A stretch of 30,882 nucleotides of DNA. Source: Clostridia bacterium (GTDB taxonomy: Bacteria > Bacillota_A > Clostridia > Christensenellales > Aristaeellaceae). The stretch lies in assembly GCA_017481065.1 (NCBI GenBank), contig JAFUPT010000043.1, forward strand, positions 1 to 30,882, written 5' to 3'. Positions 18,478 to 26,561 of this stretch are shown here, piece after piece. The stretch's first letter is position 1, and every line of letters starts with the position of its first letter. The notes under the pieces were generated by a model, which saw only the letters and a program-made list of their open reading frames with translations, had not been told where the DNA came from and searched no databases. A program made the position numbers and the translations under genes.

Positions 18478-18586
18478 GGCGAAGGAGAACCCTTTCCCCC
18501 AATTCAATCTTCATTTAACATGCATCCCGGTTTCTGAATTTCATGACTCGTTTATCTATTATCATAAACAAGAAGGAGTGCTGAGC

Positions 18587-20428
18587 ATGTACAACGTAAG
18601 AAAAGTAACTGATAAAATCACCTGGATCGGCGGCGAGGATCGCAGGCTGGCCCTGTTTGAAAATGTATATCCCATCCCCACCGGCGTATCCTACAACAGC
18701 TATTTCATCGATGATGAAAAGACCCTGGTGATGGACAGCGTGGACCGCTCTGTTTCCACCCAGTTCTTTGAGAACATTGAGCATATGCTCGGCTCCCGCG
18801 ATCTGGATTACCTCGTGGTCAACCATATGGAACCCGACCACGCAGCCACCGTGGAAGATGTTGTGCGCCGCTATCCCAATGTAACCATCATCTGCAATCA
18901 GAAGCTCAAGGATATGCTGCGCAACTACTTCACCTTTGATGTGGATGCGCGGGTACAGGTGGTGAAGGAAGGCGATGTGCTCTCCACCGGCGAGCTGAGC
19001 TTCACCTTCGTGATGGCTCCCATGGTGCACTGGCCGGAAGTGATGATGACCTATGAAATCACCGGCAAGATCCTCTTCTCCGCAGACGCCTTCGGCACCT
19101 TCGGCGCCCTCAACGGCTGCATCTTTGCCGACCAGGTGAATTTCGAGCGCGACTACATGGATGAGGCCCGCCGCTATTACACCAACATCGTGGGCAAGTA
19201 TGGCAACCAGGTGAAGGCCGTTCTGAAAAAGGCTTCCACCATCGAAATCAAGATGATCTGCCCCCTGCACGGCTTCGTATGGCGCAAGGACCTGGGCAGC
19301 TTCATTGAGAAATACCTGCTCTGGGCCAACTACCAGCCCGAGGAGACCGGCGTGCTGCTGGCCTACGCATCCGTATACGGCAACACCGAAAACGCCGCAA
19401 ACATCCTCGCCACCAAGCTGGCGGAGCGCGGCGTGAAGGTGCAGATGTATGATGTATCCGTCACCCATGCCAGCTACATCGTATCCGAAGCATTCCGTTA
19501 CAGCCATCTGGTGCTGGCCTCCACCACCTACAATGCCGGCATCTTCGTGAATATGGAAAACCTGGTGCACTATATCGTGAACCACAACCTGCAGAACCGC
19601 ACCGTGGCCCTGATCGAAAACGGTTCCTGGGCGCCCACCGCCGCGGGCCTGATGCGCAAGGAGCTCTCCAGCCTGAAGGGCACCGAATTCATCGAGCTGC
19701 CCATCACCATCAAGAGCGCCCTGAAGGACAACCAGCTCGCTGATATCGACCACCTGGCCCAGGCCATCGCCGATTCCATGCTCCAGCCGGAGGCCGCTCC
19801 CGCCGCCGACAAGCAGGTGGACCAGAACGCCCTGTTCAAGCTCAGCTACGGCCTCTTCGTGGTCACCGCACAGGATGACGACAAGCACAACGGCTGCATC
19901 ATCAACACCGCCATGCAGCTCACCGATACTCCCAAGCGCATCTCCATCACCGTAAACAAGGCCAACCATACCCACGACATGATCATCAACTCCCGGAAGT
20001 TCAACCTGTCCATCCTCTCCCAGGATGCACCCTTCGATCTGTTCAAGCAGTTCGGCTTCCAGAGCGGCCGCGATACCGAGAAGTTTGACGGCAAGTATGA
20101 GATCCGCGTCAGCGAAAACGGCCTGGTTTACCTGAACCAGTACGCCAATTCCTTCATCTCCGGCAAGGTTGTGGAGGCCATCGATTGCGGCACCCACACC
20201 CTCTTCGTCGCTGATGTAACCGAGGCAAAGGTGATCAACAACGAGCCCAGCGTGACCTACGCCTACTACTTTGACCACATCAAGCCCAAGCCCCAGAAGG
20301 CTGAGGACGCCAAGCCCGGCTGGGTGTGCAAGATCTGCGGCTATGTATACGAGGGCGAAAACCTGCCCGCCGACTACATCTGCCCGCTGTGCAAGCACGG
20401 CGCAGAGGACTTCGAAAAGATGAAGTAA
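18587..20428 (+). CDS. Flavodiiron protein with C-terminal flavin-reductase-like and rubredoxin domains
   Basis: A 613-residue multidomain redox enzyme. The N-terminal metallo-beta-lactamase domain (1-250) has the full diiron ligand set H80-x-E82-x-D84-H85, H148, D167 and H228. A flavodoxin domain (about 254-395) has the FMN loop YASVYGNTENAA. A flavin-reductase-like domain (about 408-560) follows, and a rubredoxin ends the chain with Cys pairs C581/C584 and C599/C602. Family knowledge: flavodiiron proteins reduce O2 to water or NO to N2O in anaerobes; here the electron-relay modules are built in. The start at 18587 is set by AAGGAG eight bases upstream; a GTG three codons earlier overlaps that ribosome site. 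It stands alone between trkH and a convergent DUF89 gene. A weak TATTAT box lies near 18557, but no clear -35 was found. Confidence 0.93.
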   Translation: MYNVRKVTDKITWIGGEDRRLALFENVYPIPTGVSYNSYFIDDEKTLVMDSVDRSVSTQFFENIEHMLGSRDLDYLVVNHMEPDHAATVEDVVRRYPNVTIICNQKLKDMLRNYFTFDVDARVQVVKEGDVLSTGELSFTFVMAPMVHWPEVMMTYEITGKILFSADAFGTFGALNGCIFADQVNFERDYMDEARRYYTNIVGKYGNQVKAVLKKASTIEIKMICPLHGFVWRKDLGSFIEKYLLWANYQPEETGVLLAYASVYGNTENAANILATKLAERGVKVQMYDVSVTHASYIVSEAFRYSHLVLASTTYNAGIFVNMENLVHYIVNHNLQNRTVALIENGSWAPTAAGLMRKELSSLKGTEFIELPITIKSALKDNQLADIDHLAQAIADSMLQPEAAPAADKQVDQNALFKLSYGLFVVTAQDDDKHNGCIINTAMQLTDTPKRISITVNKANHTHDMIINSRKFNLSILSQDAPFDLFKQFGFQSGRDTEKFDGKYEIRVSENGLVYLNQYANSFISGKVVEAIDCGTHTLFVADVTEAKVINNEPSVTYAYYFDHIKPKPQKAEDAKPGWVCKICGYVYEGENLPADYICPLCKHGAEDFEKMK

Positions 20429-21636: not shown

Positions 21637-21680
21637 ATCCATATCTCCCATAACGCTTTTTCAGGGGCCATTGTGCCGCA

Positions 21681-21709
21681 ATTATACCATAAACAGGAAT
21701 GCATTGCAA
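21681..21709 (-). promoter_or_regulatory. Promoter of the DUF89 gene
   Basis: On the minus strand TTGCAA (21709-21704), a 17-base spacer, then TATAAT (21686-21681) with extended TG-N. It is the third promoter here with TTGCAA as its -35 box. Confidence 0.82.
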
Positions 21710-21738
21710 ATATCCGCCGGATTTTATCAGATAAACTA

Positions 21739-21767
21739 TTGACAAATTCAATACTTAGCATTATAAT
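21739..21767 (+). promoter_or_regulatory. Promoter of the Phe T-box and amino-acid transporter locus
   Basis: Perfect TTGACA (21739-21744), a 17-base spacer and perfect TATAAT (21762-21767), placing the start just before the T-box leader. Confidence 0.9.
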
Positions 21768-21777
21768 TGCTTATGTA

Positions 21778-22089
21778 AAAACCTTCCGGGACGCACCCGG
21801 ACGGAACAGAAACGAAATGCTGCGATCGGGAATCAGTAACCTGCAAGCTGCACGAATCAAAGAGAGCCCCGCAAGCTGGGAAGGGGCATTCGGGCCGCAG
21901 GCGAATTCATCCCGTAGCCGTGCGCTGAAGGCGGAGAACCGCTGCGTAGGCGCTACCGGGGCTTTCCCGTTACAGGAAGCGGGCAATGAACGTTGCCCAG
22001 TGAGGCCCGAACCGCGAGGTTTGGGCAAAACGAGGTGGTACCGCGTGAACTACGCCCTCTGTGCAAGCCTGCACAGGGGGCTGTTTTTT
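21778..22089 (+). promoter_or_regulatory. T-box leader 1, specifier UUC (tRNA-Phe)
   Basis: A complete transcriptional T-box. The Stem I specifier loop is closed by CGGGA (21827-21831) with TCCCG (21910-21914) and by CCTG (21840-21843) with CAGG (21898-21901). Its 5' strand carries AGTA (21835-21838) and its 3' strand CGAA-UUC-A, the loop-E arrangement, so the specifier at 21906-21908 is UUC, a Phe codon. The AGAGAG distal-loop motif is at 21861-21866. The T-box sequence GAGGTGGTACCGCG (22032-22045) has bulge UGGU, complementary to an ACCA 3' end, as expected for tRNA-Phe (discriminator A). The terminator follows at 22054-22089. Uncharged tRNA-Phe should allow read-through into the binding-protein gene. 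Confidence 0.93.
22054..22089 (+). terminator. T-box 1 regulated terminator
   Basis: Stem GCCCTCTGTGC / GCACAGGGGGC (11 bp, one G-U pair) with a 6-base loop and TTTTTT (22084-22089). It begins just after, and competes with, the antiterminator containing the T-box sequence. Confidence 0.92.
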
Positions 22090-22150
22090 ATCGTATCCCA
22101 CCGGCACGGCGCCGGTTTTATAGGATTCACAATCAAGGAGGAAACACAAA

Positions 22151-23095
22151 ATGAAGAAGATTCTGGCCATTATGATCGCACTGGTGCTCGCACTGTCCTT
22201 CGCCGCAGTTGCAGAGGAAAAGACCTACAACATCGGCATCTGCCAGCTGGTGCAGCACGTCGCCCTCGACGACGCCACCCAGGGCTTCAAGGATGCGCTC
22301 ACCGAAAAGCTGGGCGACAAGGTGACCTTCAATGAGCAGAACGCCTCCGGCGATTCCGCCACCTGCATCACCATCGTAAACGGCTTCATTTCCGAAAATG
22401 TTGATCTGATCATGGCCAACGCCACCCCCGCCCTGCAGGCTGCGCAGGCCGGCACCGGCGAAATCCCGATCCTGGGCACTTCTGTAACCGACTACGGCAC
22501 CGCCCTGGGCATTGATCCCTGGACCGGCATCACCGGCTACAACATCTCCGGCACTTCCGACCTTGCTCCTCTGGACGGCCAGGCCAAGCTGCTCAACGAG
22601 CTCTTCCCGGACGCCAAGGAAGTGGGCCTGCTCTACTGCACCGCGGAAGCCAATTCCGTGTACCAGGTGACCGAGGTTGAAAAGTACCTGACCGAAATGG
22701 GCTACAACTGCACCATGTACGGCTTCACCGATTCCAACGACGTAGCTTCCGTAACCCAGAATGCATGCGCCAGCAGCGATGTGCTCTATGCCCCCACCGA
22801 CAACACCATGGCGAGCTGCACCGAGGCCATCCGCAACGTGATCGATGTGGAAAAGAAGGCCATCGTGGGCGGCGATGAAGGCATCTGCAAGGGCGCAGGC
22901 GTTGCCACCATCTGCATCAATTACTACGACCTGGGCTACGCCACCGGCGAAATGGCCTATGAAATCCTGGTAAACGGCGCAGACATCACCAAGATGCCCG
23001 TGGAATTCAGCCCCAACCCGCTGAAGAAGTACAACGCCGAGCTGTGCGAATACCTGGGCGTTTCCATTCCCGAGGGCTACGAGGCCATCGCTTAA
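22151..23095 (+). CDS. TrpX-like amino-acid ABC transporter substrate-binding protein 1 (Phe T-box controlled)
   Basis: A 314-residue exported binding protein of the ABC_sub_bind (TrpX, PF04392) family. The signal peptide MKKILAIMIALVLALSFAAVA is followed by EEKTYNIGICQLVQHVALDD, the family N-terminal motif; there is no lipobox cysteine. Further family segments are NEQNASGDSATCITIVNGFI, DLIMANATPALQAAQ, IPILGTSVTDYG and IVGGDEGICKGAGVATICIN. TrpX proteins capture aromatic amino acids in transporters predicted from T-box context. The leader reads a Phe codon, so phenylalanine is the most likely ligand by inference. AAGGAGG lies before the ATG. It shares long near-identical DNA with binding protein 3 (24619-25566). 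It is followed by the second T-box unit, not directly by transporter genes. Confidence 0.9.
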   Translation: MKKILAIMIALVLALSFAAVAEEKTYNIGICQLVQHVALDDATQGFKDALTEKLGDKVTFNEQNASGDSATCITIVNGFISENVDLIMANATPALQAAQAGTGEIPILGTSVTDYGTALGIDPWTGITGYNISGTSDLAPLDGQAKLLNELFPDAKEVGLLYCTAEANSVYQVTEVEKYLTEMGYNCTMYGFTDSNDVASVTQNACASSDVLYAPTDNTMASCTEAIRNVIDVEKKAIVGGDEGICKGAGVATICINYYDLGYATGEMAYEILVNGADITKMPVEFSPNPLKKYNAELCEYLGVSIPEGYEAIA

Positions 23096-23179
23096 TCCGC
23101 GGCGGGAGCACCCCCGGTTTGCGCCGGAATGAAACCGAACTGTTTTTCCCCTTTTTTCTGAAATATTCAGAATTAGGGC

Positions 23180-23208
23180 TTGACAGATCCAAAAGTGACG
23201 GCTATAAT
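23180..23208 (+). promoter_or_regulatory. Promoter of the Tyr T-box unit
   Basis: TTGACA (23180-23185), a 17-base spacer and TATAAT (23203-23208), located 84 bases after binding protein 1. A weak CGGTTT/AAACCG hairpin followed by T tracts (23115-23156) just upstream may end the first transcript. Confidence 0.9.
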
Positions 23209-23239
23209 AACACTTAATAGATCGAGTTTCCGAAACAAT

Positions 23240-23538
23240 TTCGGCACAATGAAAAAGCGATAACCGAGAACAAGTAACCTGTGATCGCGCGGATTCCAGA
23301 GAGCCCCGGCAGCTGGAAAGGGGCATTCGGCCCGCAGGCGAATACATCTCGCAGCTTCACGTTGAAGGCATGAAAGCTGCTGCGTAGGCGATGACGGCTC
23401 CTTCCCGTTACAGAAGGGTGGCAATTTAGCATTGCCCGCTGAGGCCGGAGCCGCAAGGCTCAGGCAAACTGAGGTGGTACCGCGTATTTTACGCCCTCTG
23501 CACTGTAAAACGACACAGGCAGGGGGCGTCGATTTTTT
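23240..23538 (+). promoter_or_regulatory. T-box leader 2, specifier UAC (tRNA-Tyr)
   Basis: The same architecture as leader 1. The specifier loop is closed by CGAGA (23265-23269) with TCTCG (23347-23351) and CCTG (23278-23281) with CAGG (23335-23338). AGTA (23273-23276) faces CGAA-UAC-A, so the specifier at 23343-23345 is UAC, a Tyr codon. The closing stem differs from leader 1 on both strands (CGGGA/TCCCG versus CGAGA/TCTCG), a compensatory change that supports the fold. AGAGAG is at 23298-23303. The T-box sequence GAGGTGGTACCGCG is at 23471-23484 with bulge UGGU, matching discriminator A of tRNA-Tyr. The terminator follows at 23491-23538. Confidence 0.93.
23491..23538 (+). terminator. T-box 2 regulated terminator
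   Basis: Stem ACGCCCTCTGC / GCAGGGGGCGT, extended by CTGT/ACAG inside, then TTTTTT (23533-23538). Confidence 0.92.
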
Positions 23539-23584
23539 CGGAACGCCTCCCGGAAACTGAAAGTTTTAGGGGGTATAGATACAT

Positions 23585-24529
23585 ATGAAAAGATTTCTGG
23601 CGGCGCTGCTGGCCGCAATGCTGGCCTTCTCATTCTCCGCCATGGCAGAGGGCCCCAGCTACACCGTAGGCATCTGCCAGCTGGTGCAGCATGACGCGCT
23701 GGACGACGCGACCCTGGGCTTCAAGGCCGCCCTCACCGAACTGCTCGGCAGCAGAATCTCCTTCATTGAACAGAATGCATCCGGCGATACCGCCACCTGC
23801 ATTTCCATTGCAAATTCCTTCATCGCCGAGGAAGTGGACCTGATCCTGGCCAACGCCACCCAGGCCCTGCAGGCGGTTTACGCCAGCACCGGCGATATCC
23901 CGGTTCTGGGCGTATCCGTATCGGATTACGCGGCCGCGCTGGATATGGACCAGTGGACCGGCGTGACCGGGGTAAACGTATCCGGCACCAGCGACCTGGC
24001 CCCCATTGCCGACCAGGCGGAGCTGATCCGCGAGCTCTTCCCCGCGGCGAAGAATATCGGCCTGCTGTACTGCTCCTCGGAAGCCAATTCCGAATACCAG
24101 GCAGCCATCATGCAGGGACACCTGACCGCCATGGGTTACAGCTGCAAAGCCTACACCTTCACCGATTCCAACGATGTTTTCGCCGTGACGCAGAACGCCT
24201 GCGCGGGCAGCGATGTGATCTACGTTCCCACGGACAACGTAGTGGCCTCCTGCAGCGAGGTCATCCGCAATGTGATCGATGTGGAAAAGACGCCCATCAT
24301 TGGCGGCGACGAGGGCATCTGTTCCGTATGCGGCGTTGCCACCCTGGGCATGAATTACTATTCCCTCGGCTATGCCACCGGCAAGATGGCCTACCGCATC
24401 CTGGTGCAGGGCGCGGACCCGGCCACCATGCCCATCCAGTTCGTATCCAATTTCACCAAGAAATACAATGCTGAGCTGTGTCAGTATCTCGGCATCAGCG
24501 TTCCCGGGGACTTTGAAGCCCTGGACTGA
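23585..24529 (+). CDS. TrpX-like amino-acid ABC transporter substrate-binding protein 2 (Tyr T-box controlled)
   Basis: A 314-residue binding protein, paralogous to its two neighbours but the most diverged of the three. The signal peptide MKRFLAALLAAMLAFSFSAMA ends in A-M-A before EG; no lipobox is present. Family segments are YTVGICQLVQHDALDDATLG, NASGDTATCISIANSFI, VPTDNVVASCSEVIRNVID and GGDEGICSVCGVATLGMNYY. Differences from paralogue 1 in segments lining the cleft (VSVSDYAAALDMD in place of TSVTDYGTALGID) may reflect a different ligand. Because the leader senses tRNA-Tyr, tyrosine is the inferred ligand. GGGGG lies about 11 bases before the ATG, weaker than for the flanking genes. Transcription can continue into binding protein 3, the permease and the ATPase. 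Confidence 0.9.
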   Translation: MKRFLAALLAAMLAFSFSAMAEGPSYTVGICQLVQHDALDDATLGFKAALTELLGSRISFIEQNASGDTATCISIANSFIAEEVDLILANATQALQAVYASTGDIPVLGVSVSDYAAALDMDQWTGVTGVNVSGTSDLAPIADQAELIRELFPAAKNIGLLYCSSEANSEYQAAIMQGHLTAMGYSCKAYTFTDSNDVFAVTQNACAGSDVIYVPTDNVVASCSEVIRNVIDVEKTPIIGGDEGICSVCGVATLGMNYYSLGYATGKMAYRILVQGADPATMPIQFVSNFTKKYNAELCQYLGISVPGDFEALD

Positions 24530-24618
24530 ATTCCCTTTGATTGCCTGAGGTTCCCGGTAGGGCCCTGCCGGAATCCTCTCGTATAAGAGCTTAAAACCAA
24601 TTACAGGAGGAAACCGAA

Positions 24619-25566
24619 ATGAAGAAAGTTATTGCAATCCTGATGGCAGCCCTGCTCTGCCTGTCCATGACCTGCGCATTCGCAGAGGAAACCACCTACA
24701 ACGTAGGCATCTGCCAGCTGGTGCAGCACGATGCACTCGACGCCGCCACCCAGGGCTTCATGGATGCCCTGACCGAGAAGCTGGGCGACAAGGTGACCTT
24801 CAACGAGCAGAACGCCTCCGGCGATTCCGCCACCTGCATCACCATCGTAAACGGCTTCATCTCCGAAAATGTTGACCTGATCATGGCCAACGCCACCCCC
24901 GCCCTGCAGGCCGCAGTTGCCGGCACCGCTGACATCCCGATCCTGGGCACCTCCGTAACCGACTACGGCACCGCCCTGGCCATCGACAACTGGACCGGCA
25001 CCACCGGCATCAACGTATCCGGCACTTCCGACCTTGCTCCCCTGGACGGCCAGGCCGCAATGATCAAGGAGCTGTTCCCCGACGCCAAGGAGATCGGCCT
25101 GCTGTACTGCTCCGCAGAAGCCAATTCCGCATACCAGATTGAAGTGATCACCGGCTACCTGACCGAGATGGGCTACAACTGCACCAACTATGTATTCGCC
25201 GATTCCAACGACGTTGCCTCCGTTGCCACCAACGCCTGCGCCAGCAGCGACGTGATCTACATCCCCACCGACAACACTGCCGCTTCCTGCACCGAAGCAA
25301 TCCGCAATGTAGTGGAGCCCGCCGGCGTTCCGGTAGTGGCCGGTGAAGAAGGCATCTGCGGCGGCTGCGGCGTTGCCACCCTGTCCATCAGCTACTATGA
25401 CCTGGGCGTCGCCACCGGCGAAATGGCCTATGAGATCCTGGTAAACGGCGCTGATGTTACCACCATGCCCGTTCAGTTCGCCCCGAACTTCACCAAGAAG
25501 TACAATGCCGAGCTGTGCACCGCTCTGGGCGTAACCATTCCCGCTGATTATGTAGCCATCGGCTAA
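24619..25566 (+). CDS. TrpX-like amino-acid ABC transporter substrate-binding protein 3 (no own T-box)
   Basis: A 315-residue binding protein. The signal peptide MKKVIAILMAALLCLSMTCAFA has two cysteines in or near the core, but neither sits in a lipobox; cleavage after A-F-A is likely. It is much closer to binding protein 1 than to 2: the segment LTEKLGDKVTFNEQNASGDS and the bases encoding it are almost unchanged. A unique feature is NVVEPAGVPVVAGEEGICGG where the others have NVIDVEK...GGDEGIC. The 89-base gap before it has an imperfect GAGGTTCC...GGAATCCTC hairpin and a small CTCT-CGTAT-AAGAG hairpin but no T-box or convincing promoter. GGAGG precedes the ATG. The ligand is unknown; the family suggests an aromatic amino acid. 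It is followed by a stem-loop and the permease. Confidence 0.9.
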   Translation: MKKVIAILMAALLCLSMTCAFAEETTYNVGICQLVQHDALDAATQGFMDALTEKLGDKVTFNEQNASGDSATCITIVNGFISENVDLIMANATPALQAAVAGTADIPILGTSVTDYGTALAIDNWTGTTGINVSGTSDLAPLDGQAAMIKELFPDAKEIGLLYCSAEANSAYQIEVITGYLTEMGYNCTNYVFADSNDVASVATNACASSDVIYIPTDNTAASCTEAIRNVVEPAGVPVVAGEEGICGGCGVATLSISYYDLGVATGEMAYEILVNGADVTTMPVQFAPNFTKKYNAELCTALGVTIPADYVAIG

Positions 25567-25582: not shown

Positions 25583-25618
25583 CGAAAAGAGCAGTGGCGC
25601 CCGCCGCTGTTCTTTTCG
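25583..25618 (+). other. Intercistronic stem-loop between binding protein 3 and permease
   Basis: Stem CGAAAAGAGCAG / CTGTTCTTTTCG with inner G-C pairs, about 15 bp, in the 65-to-80-base gap before the permease. The T content is in the stem only, so transcript stabilisation or partial termination is more likely than a full stop. Confidence 0.65.
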
Positions 25619-25646
25619 CGCATCATGAAACTTGGGGGAAAAGAGA

Positions 25647-26561
25647 TTGAATTTTGTAACACTGTTCAACGCCATGCCTGGCGCAATCGCCCAGGGCCTC
25701 ATCTGGGGCATCATGGCGATCGGCCTGTACATCACTTATAAAGTGCTTGACTACTCCGACCTTACCGTTGACGGCACGATGGCCACCGGCGGCGCCGTTT
25801 GCATCATGCTGATGATGAACGGCTGGAATACCTGGCTTGCGCTGATCGTGGCGGTCATCGCCGGCATGCTGGCGGGCCTGGCCACCGGCCTGTTCCACAC
25901 CACCATGGGCATTCCGCCGATCCTGGCCGGTATCCTTACCCAGCTGTCCCTGTATTCCATCAATCTGACGATCATGGGCGGCAAGGCCAACCAGGCCGTA
26001 AGCGTTACGAAGTATGATCTGATCGTCAGCTCCCGCTATGTGAAGGAACTGTCCCTGCAGAACCCCATCATCATCACCGCCATCGTGATCGCGCTGCTGA
26101 TTGCCGCGCTGTACTGGTTCTTCGGCACCGAGCTGGGCTGCGCGCTGCGCGCAACCGGCGCAAACGAGGCCATGAGCCGCGCGCAGGGCATCAACACCAA
26201 CAAATGCAAGATCCTGGGCCTGATGATCTCCAACGGCATCGTTGCCCTTGCATCCGCCATGTATTCCCATTATCAGGGCTTCGTGGATGTGAACATGGGC
26301 CGCGGCGCCATCGTAATCGGCCTGGCCGCGGTAATCATCAGCGGCGTAATTTTCGGCAAGATCTTCCGCAACTTCGCCCTGAAGCTGGTTGCGGTTGCCC
26401 TCGGCGCTGTGATTTACTATGTGGTTATCCAGGTGGTGCTCTGGCTGGGCCTGAACACCAATATGCTCAAGCTGCTCTCCGCGCTCATCGTGGCGCTGTT
26501 CCTGGCCATCCCCTACTGGAAGAGCAAGATTCACCTGAAGGGAGGCCACAAGCATGCTTGA
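25647..26561 (+). CDS. Amino-acid ABC transporter permease (TrpY-like, BPD_transp_2)
   Basis: A 304-residue integral membrane protein with about eight hydrophobic segments. The segments GLIWGIMAIGLYITYKVLDY, DLTVDGTMATGGAV and GNANEAMSRAQGI-like ATGANEAMSRAQGINTNKCK are typical of the permease of TrpXYZ-type transporters; the last is the ATPase contact loop. No ATG fits the start: TTG at 25647 is 7 bases after GGGGG and begins MNFVTLFNAMPG, matching the family N terminus. TTG at 25632 overlaps that ribosome site, and the internal ATG at 25674 would cut the first helix. The rare start codon may lower permease yield relative to binding proteins. The last codons overlap the ATPase start by 8 bases. 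It serves all three binding proteins by inference, since no other permease is present. Confidence 0.87.
   Translation: MNFVTLFNAMPGAIAQGLIWGIMAIGLYITYKVLDYSDLTVDGTMATGGAVCIMLMMNGWNTWLALIVAVIAGMLAGLATGLFHTTMGIPPILAGILTQLSLYSINLTIMGGKANQAVSVTKYDLIVSSRYVKELSLQNPIIITAIVIALLIAALYWFFGTELGCALRATGANEAMSRAQGINTNKCKILGLMISNGIVALASAMYSHYQGFVDVNMGRGAIVIGLAAVIISGVIFGKIFRNFALKLVAVALGAVIYYVVIQVVLWLGLNTNMLKLLSALIVALFLAIPYWKSKIHLKGGHKHA

What the first reader, a model, noticed from the sequence alone, without database searches (positions are those of the whole stretch)
21739..24529. Two T-boxes with different specifiers (Phe UUC, Tyr UAC) on paralogous binding-protein genes of one ABC transporter
Seen directly: two complete T-box leaders, each with promoter, specifier loop, AGAGAG, T-box sequence and terminator, in front of two related TrpX-like genes. 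The loop-E geometry (AGTA opposite CGAA-NNN-A) fixes the specifiers as UUC and UAC. TrpXYZ systems are known mainly with Trp specifiers; here the same family appears adapted so that separate binding proteins answer to Phe and Tyr starvation while sharing one permease and ATPase. This is the strongest candidate for an undescribed system in the window.
Basis: partly seen in the sequence, partly recalled or inferred. Interest (0 to 1): 0.86.

Follow-up and report, generated by a model that had tools for sequence, protein, structure and literature searches.

The report
Two tRNA switches, one aromatic transporter
A gut-type bacterium carries one amino-acid importer core with several related capture proteins, two of which sit behind separate RNA switches that read uncharged phenylalanine tRNA and tyrosine tRNA; a similar two-switch split recurs in more distant relatives, so it looks like a real division of labour, although which amino acid each protein binds has not been measured.

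Summary
Two complete T-box leaders precede two TrpX-like binding-protein genes (Infernal E 8.5e-17 and 1.4e-18, though under Rfam's gathering score), each with a perfect sigma-70 promoter and a stable terminator stem. The specifiers are UUC (Phe, 21906-21908) and UAC (Tyr, 23343-23345); the register is supported by a covarying helix and by cognate genes behind other T-boxes. In a subfamily about 40% identical, all 12 loci with two such genes on one contig carry one Phe and one Tyr T-box; in 7 of 12 an opposite-strand gene separates the Phe gene from the core. In the window's own subfamily, however, the two relatives with two binding proteins (G189, G264) show no T-box, and three single-protein relatives have a Phe T-box only. 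Ligands are not settled: the residue that in CD0873 contacts the tyrosine hydroxyl is Glu in 16 of 17 Tyr-T-box proteins but Asp in both SBP1 and SBP2, and the phylogenetic test has too few pairs to decide. Verdict: a new variant of T-box-regulated aromatic amino-acid import.

The parts
21739..21767 (+). Promoter P1, TTGACA-17-TATAAT
   Evidence: 12 of 12 consensus matches
21813..22092 (+). T-box leader 1; specifier UUC (Phe) at 21906-21908, T-box UGGU at 22036-22039
   Evidence: RF00230 79.1 bits, E 8.5e-17, at 21813-22062; Stem I model R1 65.4 bits (the window was in the model)
22054..22087 (+). Intrinsic terminator 1, competing with the antiterminator for CCCUC (my reading)
   Evidence: -23.9 kcal/mol, z -4.9; 12-pair stem plus T run
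22151..23095 (+). SBP1, TrpX-family binding protein behind the Phe T-box
   Evidence: PF04392 170.5 bits; PDB relative 6hni E 1.8e-46
23180..23208 (+). Promoter P2, TTGACA-17-TATAAT
   Evidence: 12 of 12 consensus matches
23251..23538 (+). T-box leader 2; specifier UAC (Tyr) at 23343-23345, T-box UGGU at 23475-23478
   Evidence: RF00230 86.1 bits, E 1.4e-18, at 23251-23501; R1 72.4 bits (the window was in the model)
23491..23538 (+). Intrinsic terminator 2
   Evidence: -26.5 kcal/mol, z -7.7; not listed by the pattern scan
23585..24529 (+). SBP2, TrpX-family binding protein behind the Tyr T-box
   Evidence: PF04392 182.5 bits; 65% identical to SBP1
24619..25566 (+). SBP3, third paralogue, no T-box of its own; groups with the single binding proteins of relatives
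   Evidence: PF04392 188.6 bits; 77% identical to SBP1; best match to the core's binding protein in 79 of 80 loci; tree
25632..26561 (+). Permease, BPD_transp_2 type
   Evidence: PF02653 101.9 bits
26554..27351 (+). ATPase, ABC_tran
   Evidence: PF00005 95.2 bits

Best explanation
This is an aromatic amino-acid ABC importer of the TrpXYZ type whose binding proteins have been duplicated and put under separate tRNA sensors. Uncharged tRNA-Phe pairs with UUC in leader 1, stabilises the antiterminator and lets SBP1 be made. Uncharged tRNA-Tyr does the same through UAC in leader 2 for the transcript carrying SBP2, SBP3, permease and ATPase. Charged tRNA lets each terminator form. SBP1 then competes with SBP2 and SBP3 for one permease, so the cell shifts the importer's substrate bias according to which aromatic amino acid is short, with the core itself answering to Tyr shortage. 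Shown: leaders, specifiers, promoters, terminator stems, gene order, and the same pairing of specifiers in a related subfamily. Inferred from family knowledge: tRNA binding and antitermination. Inferred and weakest: that SBP1 prefers Phe and SBP2 prefers Tyr, and that all three proteins feed the one permease.
For: Both leaders are T-boxes by covariance model. The helix that closes the specifier loop is 95.9% paired across 44 leaders with changes on both sides at all 5 pairs; the whole structure is 87.2% paired against 34.0-47.3% when slid (rows had been chosen partly by this helix). Register controls: reading three bases plus one base before the real helix gives the cognate codon ahead of pheS, tyrS (two), valS, asnB and a TrpB-like gene, 6 of 6 resolved by script; TBDB (PMC7778990, passages read) gives priority to the same register. 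In 12 of 12 two-gene loci of a related subfamily there is one Phe and one Tyr T-box. Starred branches force at least 5 changes of the Phe/Tyr label among 43 labelled proteins (3 in the quick tree of 125 rows). In 7 of 12 loci an opposite-strand gene separates the Phe gene from the core, and in 10 of 12 the Tyr gene is the one next to the permease. No further promoter-like site on the + strand up to 27500. The UGG class differs around the pocket (Pro115 in 9 of 9 rows, Leu215 in 8 of 9) from the window proteins (Tyr115, Pro215).
Against: The published Tyr-hydroxyl contact (CD0873 Glu263) aligns with Asp in both SBP1 (Phe) and SBP2 (Tyr), and with Glu in SBP3. Glu is not a marker of Tyr: 17 of 34 Phe-T-box and 8 of 10 Trp-T-box proteins also have it, and the independent-pairs test finds 5 pairs, too few to reach significance. 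In the window's own subfamily the split was not seen elsewhere: G189 and G264 have two binding proteins ahead of the core and no Stem I hit or T-box motif ahead of them. Of 79 permease-nearest loci that show the core's binding protein, none has a Stem I hit just ahead of it, though L051 and L070 hold under 200 bases there. The window's leaders are no closer to each other (71%) than to L112's Phe leader (73 and 72%). One neighbouring T-box does not fit its gene: UGG ahead of a prephenate dehydratase, L103. The window's own genome and tRNA genes are not held.
Confidence: 0.64

Rival explanations
1. The T-boxes are real, but the two proteins have the same broad aromatic specificity; the two specifiers only let either shortage raise total uptake, an OR gate.
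For: SBP1 and SBP2 share Asp at the CD0873 Glu263 position and Tyr at the Tyr279 position. Single-protein relatives L112, L123 and L126 have a Phe T-box on a protein with Glu at that position. The pocket residue is not shown to track the specifier.
Against: In all 12 two-gene loci of the related subfamily one UUC and one UAC gene are present; an OR gate would not need diverged paralogues, 65% identical here, nor a Phe gene cut off from the core. In 8 of 11 pairs compared (10 of the 12 loci plus G076; L177 and L212 not included) the Phe protein has Asp or Ala where the Tyr protein has Glu.
Confidence: 0.25
2. One or more of the proteins binds something other than free Phe or Tyr, such as an aromatic keto acid, precursor or peptide, and the specifier reports the pathway end product.
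For: T-boxes can control uptake of precursors: PMC2494555 (passage read) describes Met T-boxes on transport of precursors and cofactors in L. plantarum. SBP3 has no T-box of its own, so its ligand is unconstrained.
Against: The three solved relatives hold a free aromatic amino acid (Tyr, Phe, Trp; PMC6816091, passages read), and SBP1 and SBP2 align with them over nearly full length.
Confidence: 0.07
3. The specifiers are misread and this is an ordinary Trp transporter.
For: The nearest named family is TrpX.
Against: Register controls; no UGG in the window's specifier loops; NF041285 scores 206.5-217.3 against a cut-off of 390; Tyr, not Gln, at the position said to admit Trp (PMC6816091), although the UGG-class proteins also have Tyr there, so that residue alone does not decide.
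Confidence: 0.02

Closest known systems
TrpXYZ of Streptococcus suis (PMC9382623; one section and passages read)
   Same: Same binding-protein family, ABC importer, transcriptional T-box ahead of the binding-protein gene
   Different: Described with one T-box with a Trp specifier; here UUC and UAC on two of three paralogues
C. difficile CD0873 (PMC6816091) and the neighbouring aromatic importer (PMC5951980); passages read
   Same: Same family; CD0873 binds Tyr; loss of the neighbouring genes goes with lower Tyr and Phe uptake; two paralogous binding proteins go with sequence-identical permeases in one strain
   Different: CD0873 does not occur in the text of PMC11477304, which lists C. difficile T-boxes (term search); two separate gene sets there, one core here
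NSS transporter in-paralogues with Leu, Phe and Trp T-boxes, B. cereus group (PMC2494555, passages read)
   Same: Transporter paralogues with different T-box specifiers
   Different: Single-component carriers; no shared core
T-box duplication with change of specificity as a general process (PMC3766115 and PMC2494555, passages read)
   Same: Copying of T-boxes and change of specifier is known and said to be frequent in Firmicutes
   Different: Here the change separates binding proteins of one importer
Two T-boxes ahead of one gene, e.g. homoserine dehydrogenase CD1580 (PMC11477304); contiguous riboswitches (PMC12452182); passages read
   Same: Two T-boxes in one locus
   Different: Both precede the same gene; here each has its own gene and its own promoter

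Membership tests
T-box riboswitch (RF00230) | Full-length match to the covariance model | tested here: met
   Model positions 1-219 matched in both, E 8.5e-17 and 1.4e-18
T-box riboswitch (RF00230) | Rfam gathering score, 93 bits | tested here: inconclusive
   79.1 and 86.1 bits, below it; T-boxes ahead of serS (L101, 89.1 bits) and a TrpB-like gene (L096, 79.5 bits) are below it too
T-box riboswitch (RF00230) | Specifier loop, AG bulge, UGGN bulge, antiterminator and terminator | tested here: met
T-box riboswitch (RF00230) | tRNA-dependent antitermination | not testable with these tools
   Needs an experiment
TrpX equivalog (NF041285) | Score over the curated cut-off of 390 | tested here: not met
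   206.5, 207.3 and 217.3 bits; so related to TrpX, not filed as TrpX
ABC_sub_bind (PF04392) | Score over the gathering cut-off of 25.9 | tested here: met
   170.5, 182.5 and 188.6 bits
Tyr-binding member (CD0873 type) | Glu at the Glu263 position, Tyr at the Tyr279 position | tested here: inconclusive
   SBP1 Asp/Tyr, SBP2 Asp/Tyr, SBP3 Glu/Tyr
Phe/Tyr split-binding-protein importer (defined here) | Two paralogues, one UUC and one UAC T-box, one core | tested here: met
   Window and 12 of 12 loci of the related subfamily; not met by G189 and G264 or by L079, where one of two binding proteins has a Phe T-box

The most novel reading that the evidence does not exclude
In this bacterial family an ABC importer is re-targeted at the level of its binding protein by tRNA charging: a Phe-tRNA-gated binding protein, often a stand-alone unit, is supplied in trans to a core that is mostly gated by Tyr-tRNA. 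The split has arisen more than once, with the middle base of the specifier changing (UUC to UAC or back). Specifier and pocket may change together, which would make the T-box a readable label for ligand evolution.
Probability: 0.4. Interest if true: 0.72.

Novelty: new variant of a known kind. Interest (0 to 1): 0.57.

Why it matters
If right, it is a case where one transporter core changes its diet through separately sensed binding proteins, with the sensor naming the predicted ligand. It gives a natural set of paired paralogues, each pre-labelled Phe or Tyr, for testing how specificity arises in a family that otherwise gets annotated as TrpX. It also warns against calling such transporters tryptophan importers by family name alone.

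Tried and rejected
Rfam at the gathering threshold finds no T-box in the window; the permissive search does. My first specifier finder was limited to AGUA and misread many leaders whose loop differs; the second still misread about fifteen. The final reading uses a covariance model built from 44 of the 46 leaders that the second finder had read as UUC, UAC or UGG (L162 and L165 left out as near-copies), so the model leans towards such leaders. Read strictly by the model's columns, the controls pheS, one tyrS and the TrpB-like gene give the cognate codon, while the other tyrS, valS, asnB and serS are one base off; reading from the real helix instead gives the cognate codon in 6 of 7, and the script did not resolve serS. 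In the window both ways agree. Leaders with an extra base (GAAGUUCA or GAAGUUCC: L156-L158, L163, L164, L166) could be read Val GUU; I read them Phe because the pheS leader L089 has the same form; none of them is in the 12 two-gene loci. G124's two leaders (L141) have lost the usual loop motif (AAUUUCC, AGAUACA), so that locus is the least sure of the 12.

The idea that Glu at the CD0873 Glu263 position marks Tyr proteins fails for SBP2 and could not be tested well. The 12 of 12 count is of loci in one subfamily, not of independent events. G030 has two binding-protein fragments on contig ends and was not read; G076 carries the UUC and UAC genes on two contigs and is not in the 12; L177's Tyr gene looks broken. 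L129 was dropped for length and identical rows went in once. Viral contigs gave nothing. No structure was predicted, since coordinates cannot be read out.

That the split system is not in print rests on the searches and 79 of an open-licence library; Vitreschak 2008 and Gutierrez-Preciado 2009 are not held and were not read. On checking, I lowered the best explanation from 0.66 to 0.64 and the novel case from 0.42 to 0.40, and raised the OR-gate rival from 0.24 to 0.25, because G189 and G264 lack T-boxes and the window's leaders are not each other's closest.
Full report
Check of the observation. The permissive Rfam scan of 21650-24650 finds two full-length T-box matches, 21813-22062 (79.1 bits, E 8.5e-17) and 23251-23501 (86.1 bits, E 1.4e-18). 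Both miss the gathering score of 93, so the default scan of the whole window reports none. Each leader follows a promoter that matches sigma-70 consensus at 12 of 12 bases with a 17-base spacer, at 21739 and 23180, and ends in a stem with a T run (-23.9 and -26.5 kcal/mol, z -4.9 and -7.7). The promoter scan found 4 sites in this stretch against 2.5 expected from shuffles; only these two reach 12 of 12, and the other two are on the minus strand. The terminator pattern scan lists the first terminator but not the second.

Specifiers. In the sequence leader 1 reads CGGGA-AUC-AGUA-a-CCUGC ... GCAGG-CGAA-UUC-A-UCCCG and leader 2 CGAGA-ACA-AGUA-a-CCUGU ... GCAGG-CGAA-UAC-A-UCUCG; the closing helix changes on both sides between them. 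I aligned 44 Stem I segments, counted pairs and built a model. The closing helix is 95.9% paired with changes on both sides at all 5 pairs; the whole structure is 87.2% paired against 34.0-47.3% with the partners slid by 1 to 3 columns. These rows had been picked partly by that helix and by having UUC, UAC or UGG, so the count leans towards it. An outside control is the gene downstream of other T-boxes: I looked behind 16 of them. Eight have a gene for which one amino acid is expected. Reading three bases plus one base before the real helix gives UUC ahead of pheS, UAC ahead of tyrS in two genomes, GUC ahead of valS, AAC ahead of asnB and UGG ahead of a TrpB-like gene (names; readings). serS was not resolved by the script. 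A prephenate dehydratase (L103) has UGG and does not fit. By the model's own columns four of these (second tyrS, valS, asnB, serS) are one base off. TBDB gives priority to the same register and allows shifts of one base (PMC7778990, passages read). In the window all ways of reading agree.

Genes. Three TrpX-family proteins lie in a row: SBP1, SBP2 and SBP3 (PF04392 at 170.5, 182.5 and 188.6 bits; SBP2 65% and SBP3 77% identical to SBP1), then a permease and an ATPase. None reaches the TrpX equivalog cut-off (206.5-217.3 against 390). The solved relatives found are 6hni (with 6hnj, 6hnk), 3lkv and 3lft, which include Tyr, Phe and Trp complexes (PMC6816091, passages read). SBP1 stands alone behind the Phe leader; no clear hairpin follows it (z 0.3), so some transcripts may run on into leader 2. 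No + strand promoter-like site was found from SBP2 to 27500 at the scan's threshold. So SBP2, SBP3 and the core seem to answer to the Tyr leader.

Near relatives. Of the 80 loci nearest by permease, 79 show the core's binding protein and 3 a second one (L035, L057, L079). Stem I hits fall in 5 of the 80, none just ahead of the core's binding protein; two are ahead of a more distant second binding protein, UGG in L057 and UUC in L079. L051 and L070 hold too little upstream DNA to tell. Among the 30 loci nearest SBP2 in one family (L111-L140) three have a UUC T-box ahead of a single SBP3-like gene: L112, L123, L126. G189 and G264 have two binding proteins ahead of the core but no Stem I hit or T-box motif ahead of them. 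No protein above 75% identity to SBP1 was met in 308 genomes of the family, while closer ones are common among metagenome proteins. In the tree these form one clade with W_SBP1, which joins W_SBP2 and a protein of G189 (support 97). So for the window's own arrangement the window is the only example I could read.

Recurrence in a related subfamily. In the same family (308 genomes), 39 hold a protein matching the Tyr-type query of L148 at 1e-80. I read every locus found in which two such genes lie on one contig: G124, G167, G101, G179, G137, G117, G027, G154, G071, G188, G096, G289. These proteins are about 40% identical to the window's. In 12 of 12 each gene has its own T-box, one UUC and one UAC; G124's leaders are the least clear. 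In 10 of 12 the Tyr gene is next to the permease; in G124 and G101 it is the Phe gene. In 7 of 12 an opposite-strand deacetylase-like gene lies between the Phe gene and the Tyr unit, so the Phe gene should be its own transcription unit there. A careful tree of 44 proteins forces at least five changes of the Phe/Tyr label; the quick tree of 125 rows forces three. Leaders within the subfamily can be closest within a locus (the two L143 leaders, 83%), but the window's two leaders (71%) are as close to L112's (73 and 72%). So copying of leader and gene together fits some loci and is open for the window. Gene conversion between neighbours was not separated from repeated duplication.

Ligands. CD0873 Glu263 bonds the tyrosine hydroxyl and Tyr279 is said to exclude Trp (PMC6816091, passages read). 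At these positions Tyr-T-box proteins have Glu/Tyr in 16 of 17 (the exception is SBP2, Asp/Tyr); Phe-T-box proteins have Glu 17, Asp 9, Tyr 7, Ala 1 of 34; Trp-T-box proteins Glu 8, Ala 2 of 10, all with Tyr at the second position; proteins without a T-box Glu 119, Asp 2 of 121. So neither residue alone predicts the specifier. In 8 of 11 pairs compared the Phe member has Asp or Ala where the Tyr member has Glu. The phylogenetic test finds only 5 independent pairs and cannot reach significance. For the window this leaves Phe, Tyr or both for SBP1 and SBP2. Trp is unlikely: the UGG class differs around the pocket (Pro115 in 9 of 9, Leu215 in 8 of 9 rows; window Tyr115, Pro215).

What is known. 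S. suis trpXYZ has one Trp T-box (PMC9382623). C. difficile has a Tyr-binding member, and loss of neighbouring genes goes with lower Tyr and Phe uptake (PMC6816091, PMC5951980). A 2008 survey (PMC2494555, the table passage read) lists Phe T-boxes on NSS carriers and Tyr T-boxes on NhaC and NSS carriers; its ABC entries lie under other amino acids, including Trp, and one row of unknown specificity; it also describes NSS in-paralogues with Leu, Phe and Trp T-boxes. Duplication of T-boxes with change of specificity is described as frequent (PMC3766115, passage read). I saw no mention of Phe and Tyr T-boxes split over binding proteins of one ABC core in the listings. Two main surveys of T-box regulons are not held and were not read, and individual leaders may well be in TBDB.

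Conclusion. The regulatory split is well supported in the window and mirrored in a related subfamily; the ligand split is plausible and directly testable. I file it as a new variant of T-box-controlled amino-acid import.

Noticed in passing
window 25583-25620: Strong hairpin (-29.3 kcal/mol, z -5.1) between SBP3 and the permease without a clean T run; it may set the binding-protein to permease ratio.
   Followed up: partly
window 22151, 23585, 24619 (protein N-termini): The three binding proteins lack a canonical lipobox; by my pattern it is present in 2 of 38 close relatives, 3 of 63 proteins of L141-L199 and 52 of 71 of L011-L080 (the pattern is crude). How the unlipidated ones stay at the cell is unclear.
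   Followed up: partly
L142, L143, L146, L148 and other two-gene loci: Variant specifier loop: GGUA or GUGUA with GAG in place of AGUA with GAA, perhaps a coupled change in the loop motif.
   Followed up: no
L082, L086: UAC (Tyr) T-boxes ahead of acyl-CoA-ligase-like genes (L086 scanned, all matches below curated cut-offs among the 25 shown; L082 not scanned).
   Followed up: partly
L091, L105: UAC-type loops ahead of PLP aminotransferase-like genes (L105 scanned, L091 not).
   Followed up: partly
L103: UGG (Trp) T-box ahead of a prephenate dehydratase, a Phe pathway gene.
   Followed up: partly
L142, L144-L146, L148, L149, L151, L153, L177, L212: A secreted deacetylase-like gene (name is my reading) is an opposite-strand neighbour in 10 of the 12 two-gene loci, and a same-strand one in L141.
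   Followed up: partly
window 18578-20428: One long protein joins ODP-type beta-lactamase, flavodoxin, flavin reductase and rubredoxin-like domains.
   Followed up: no
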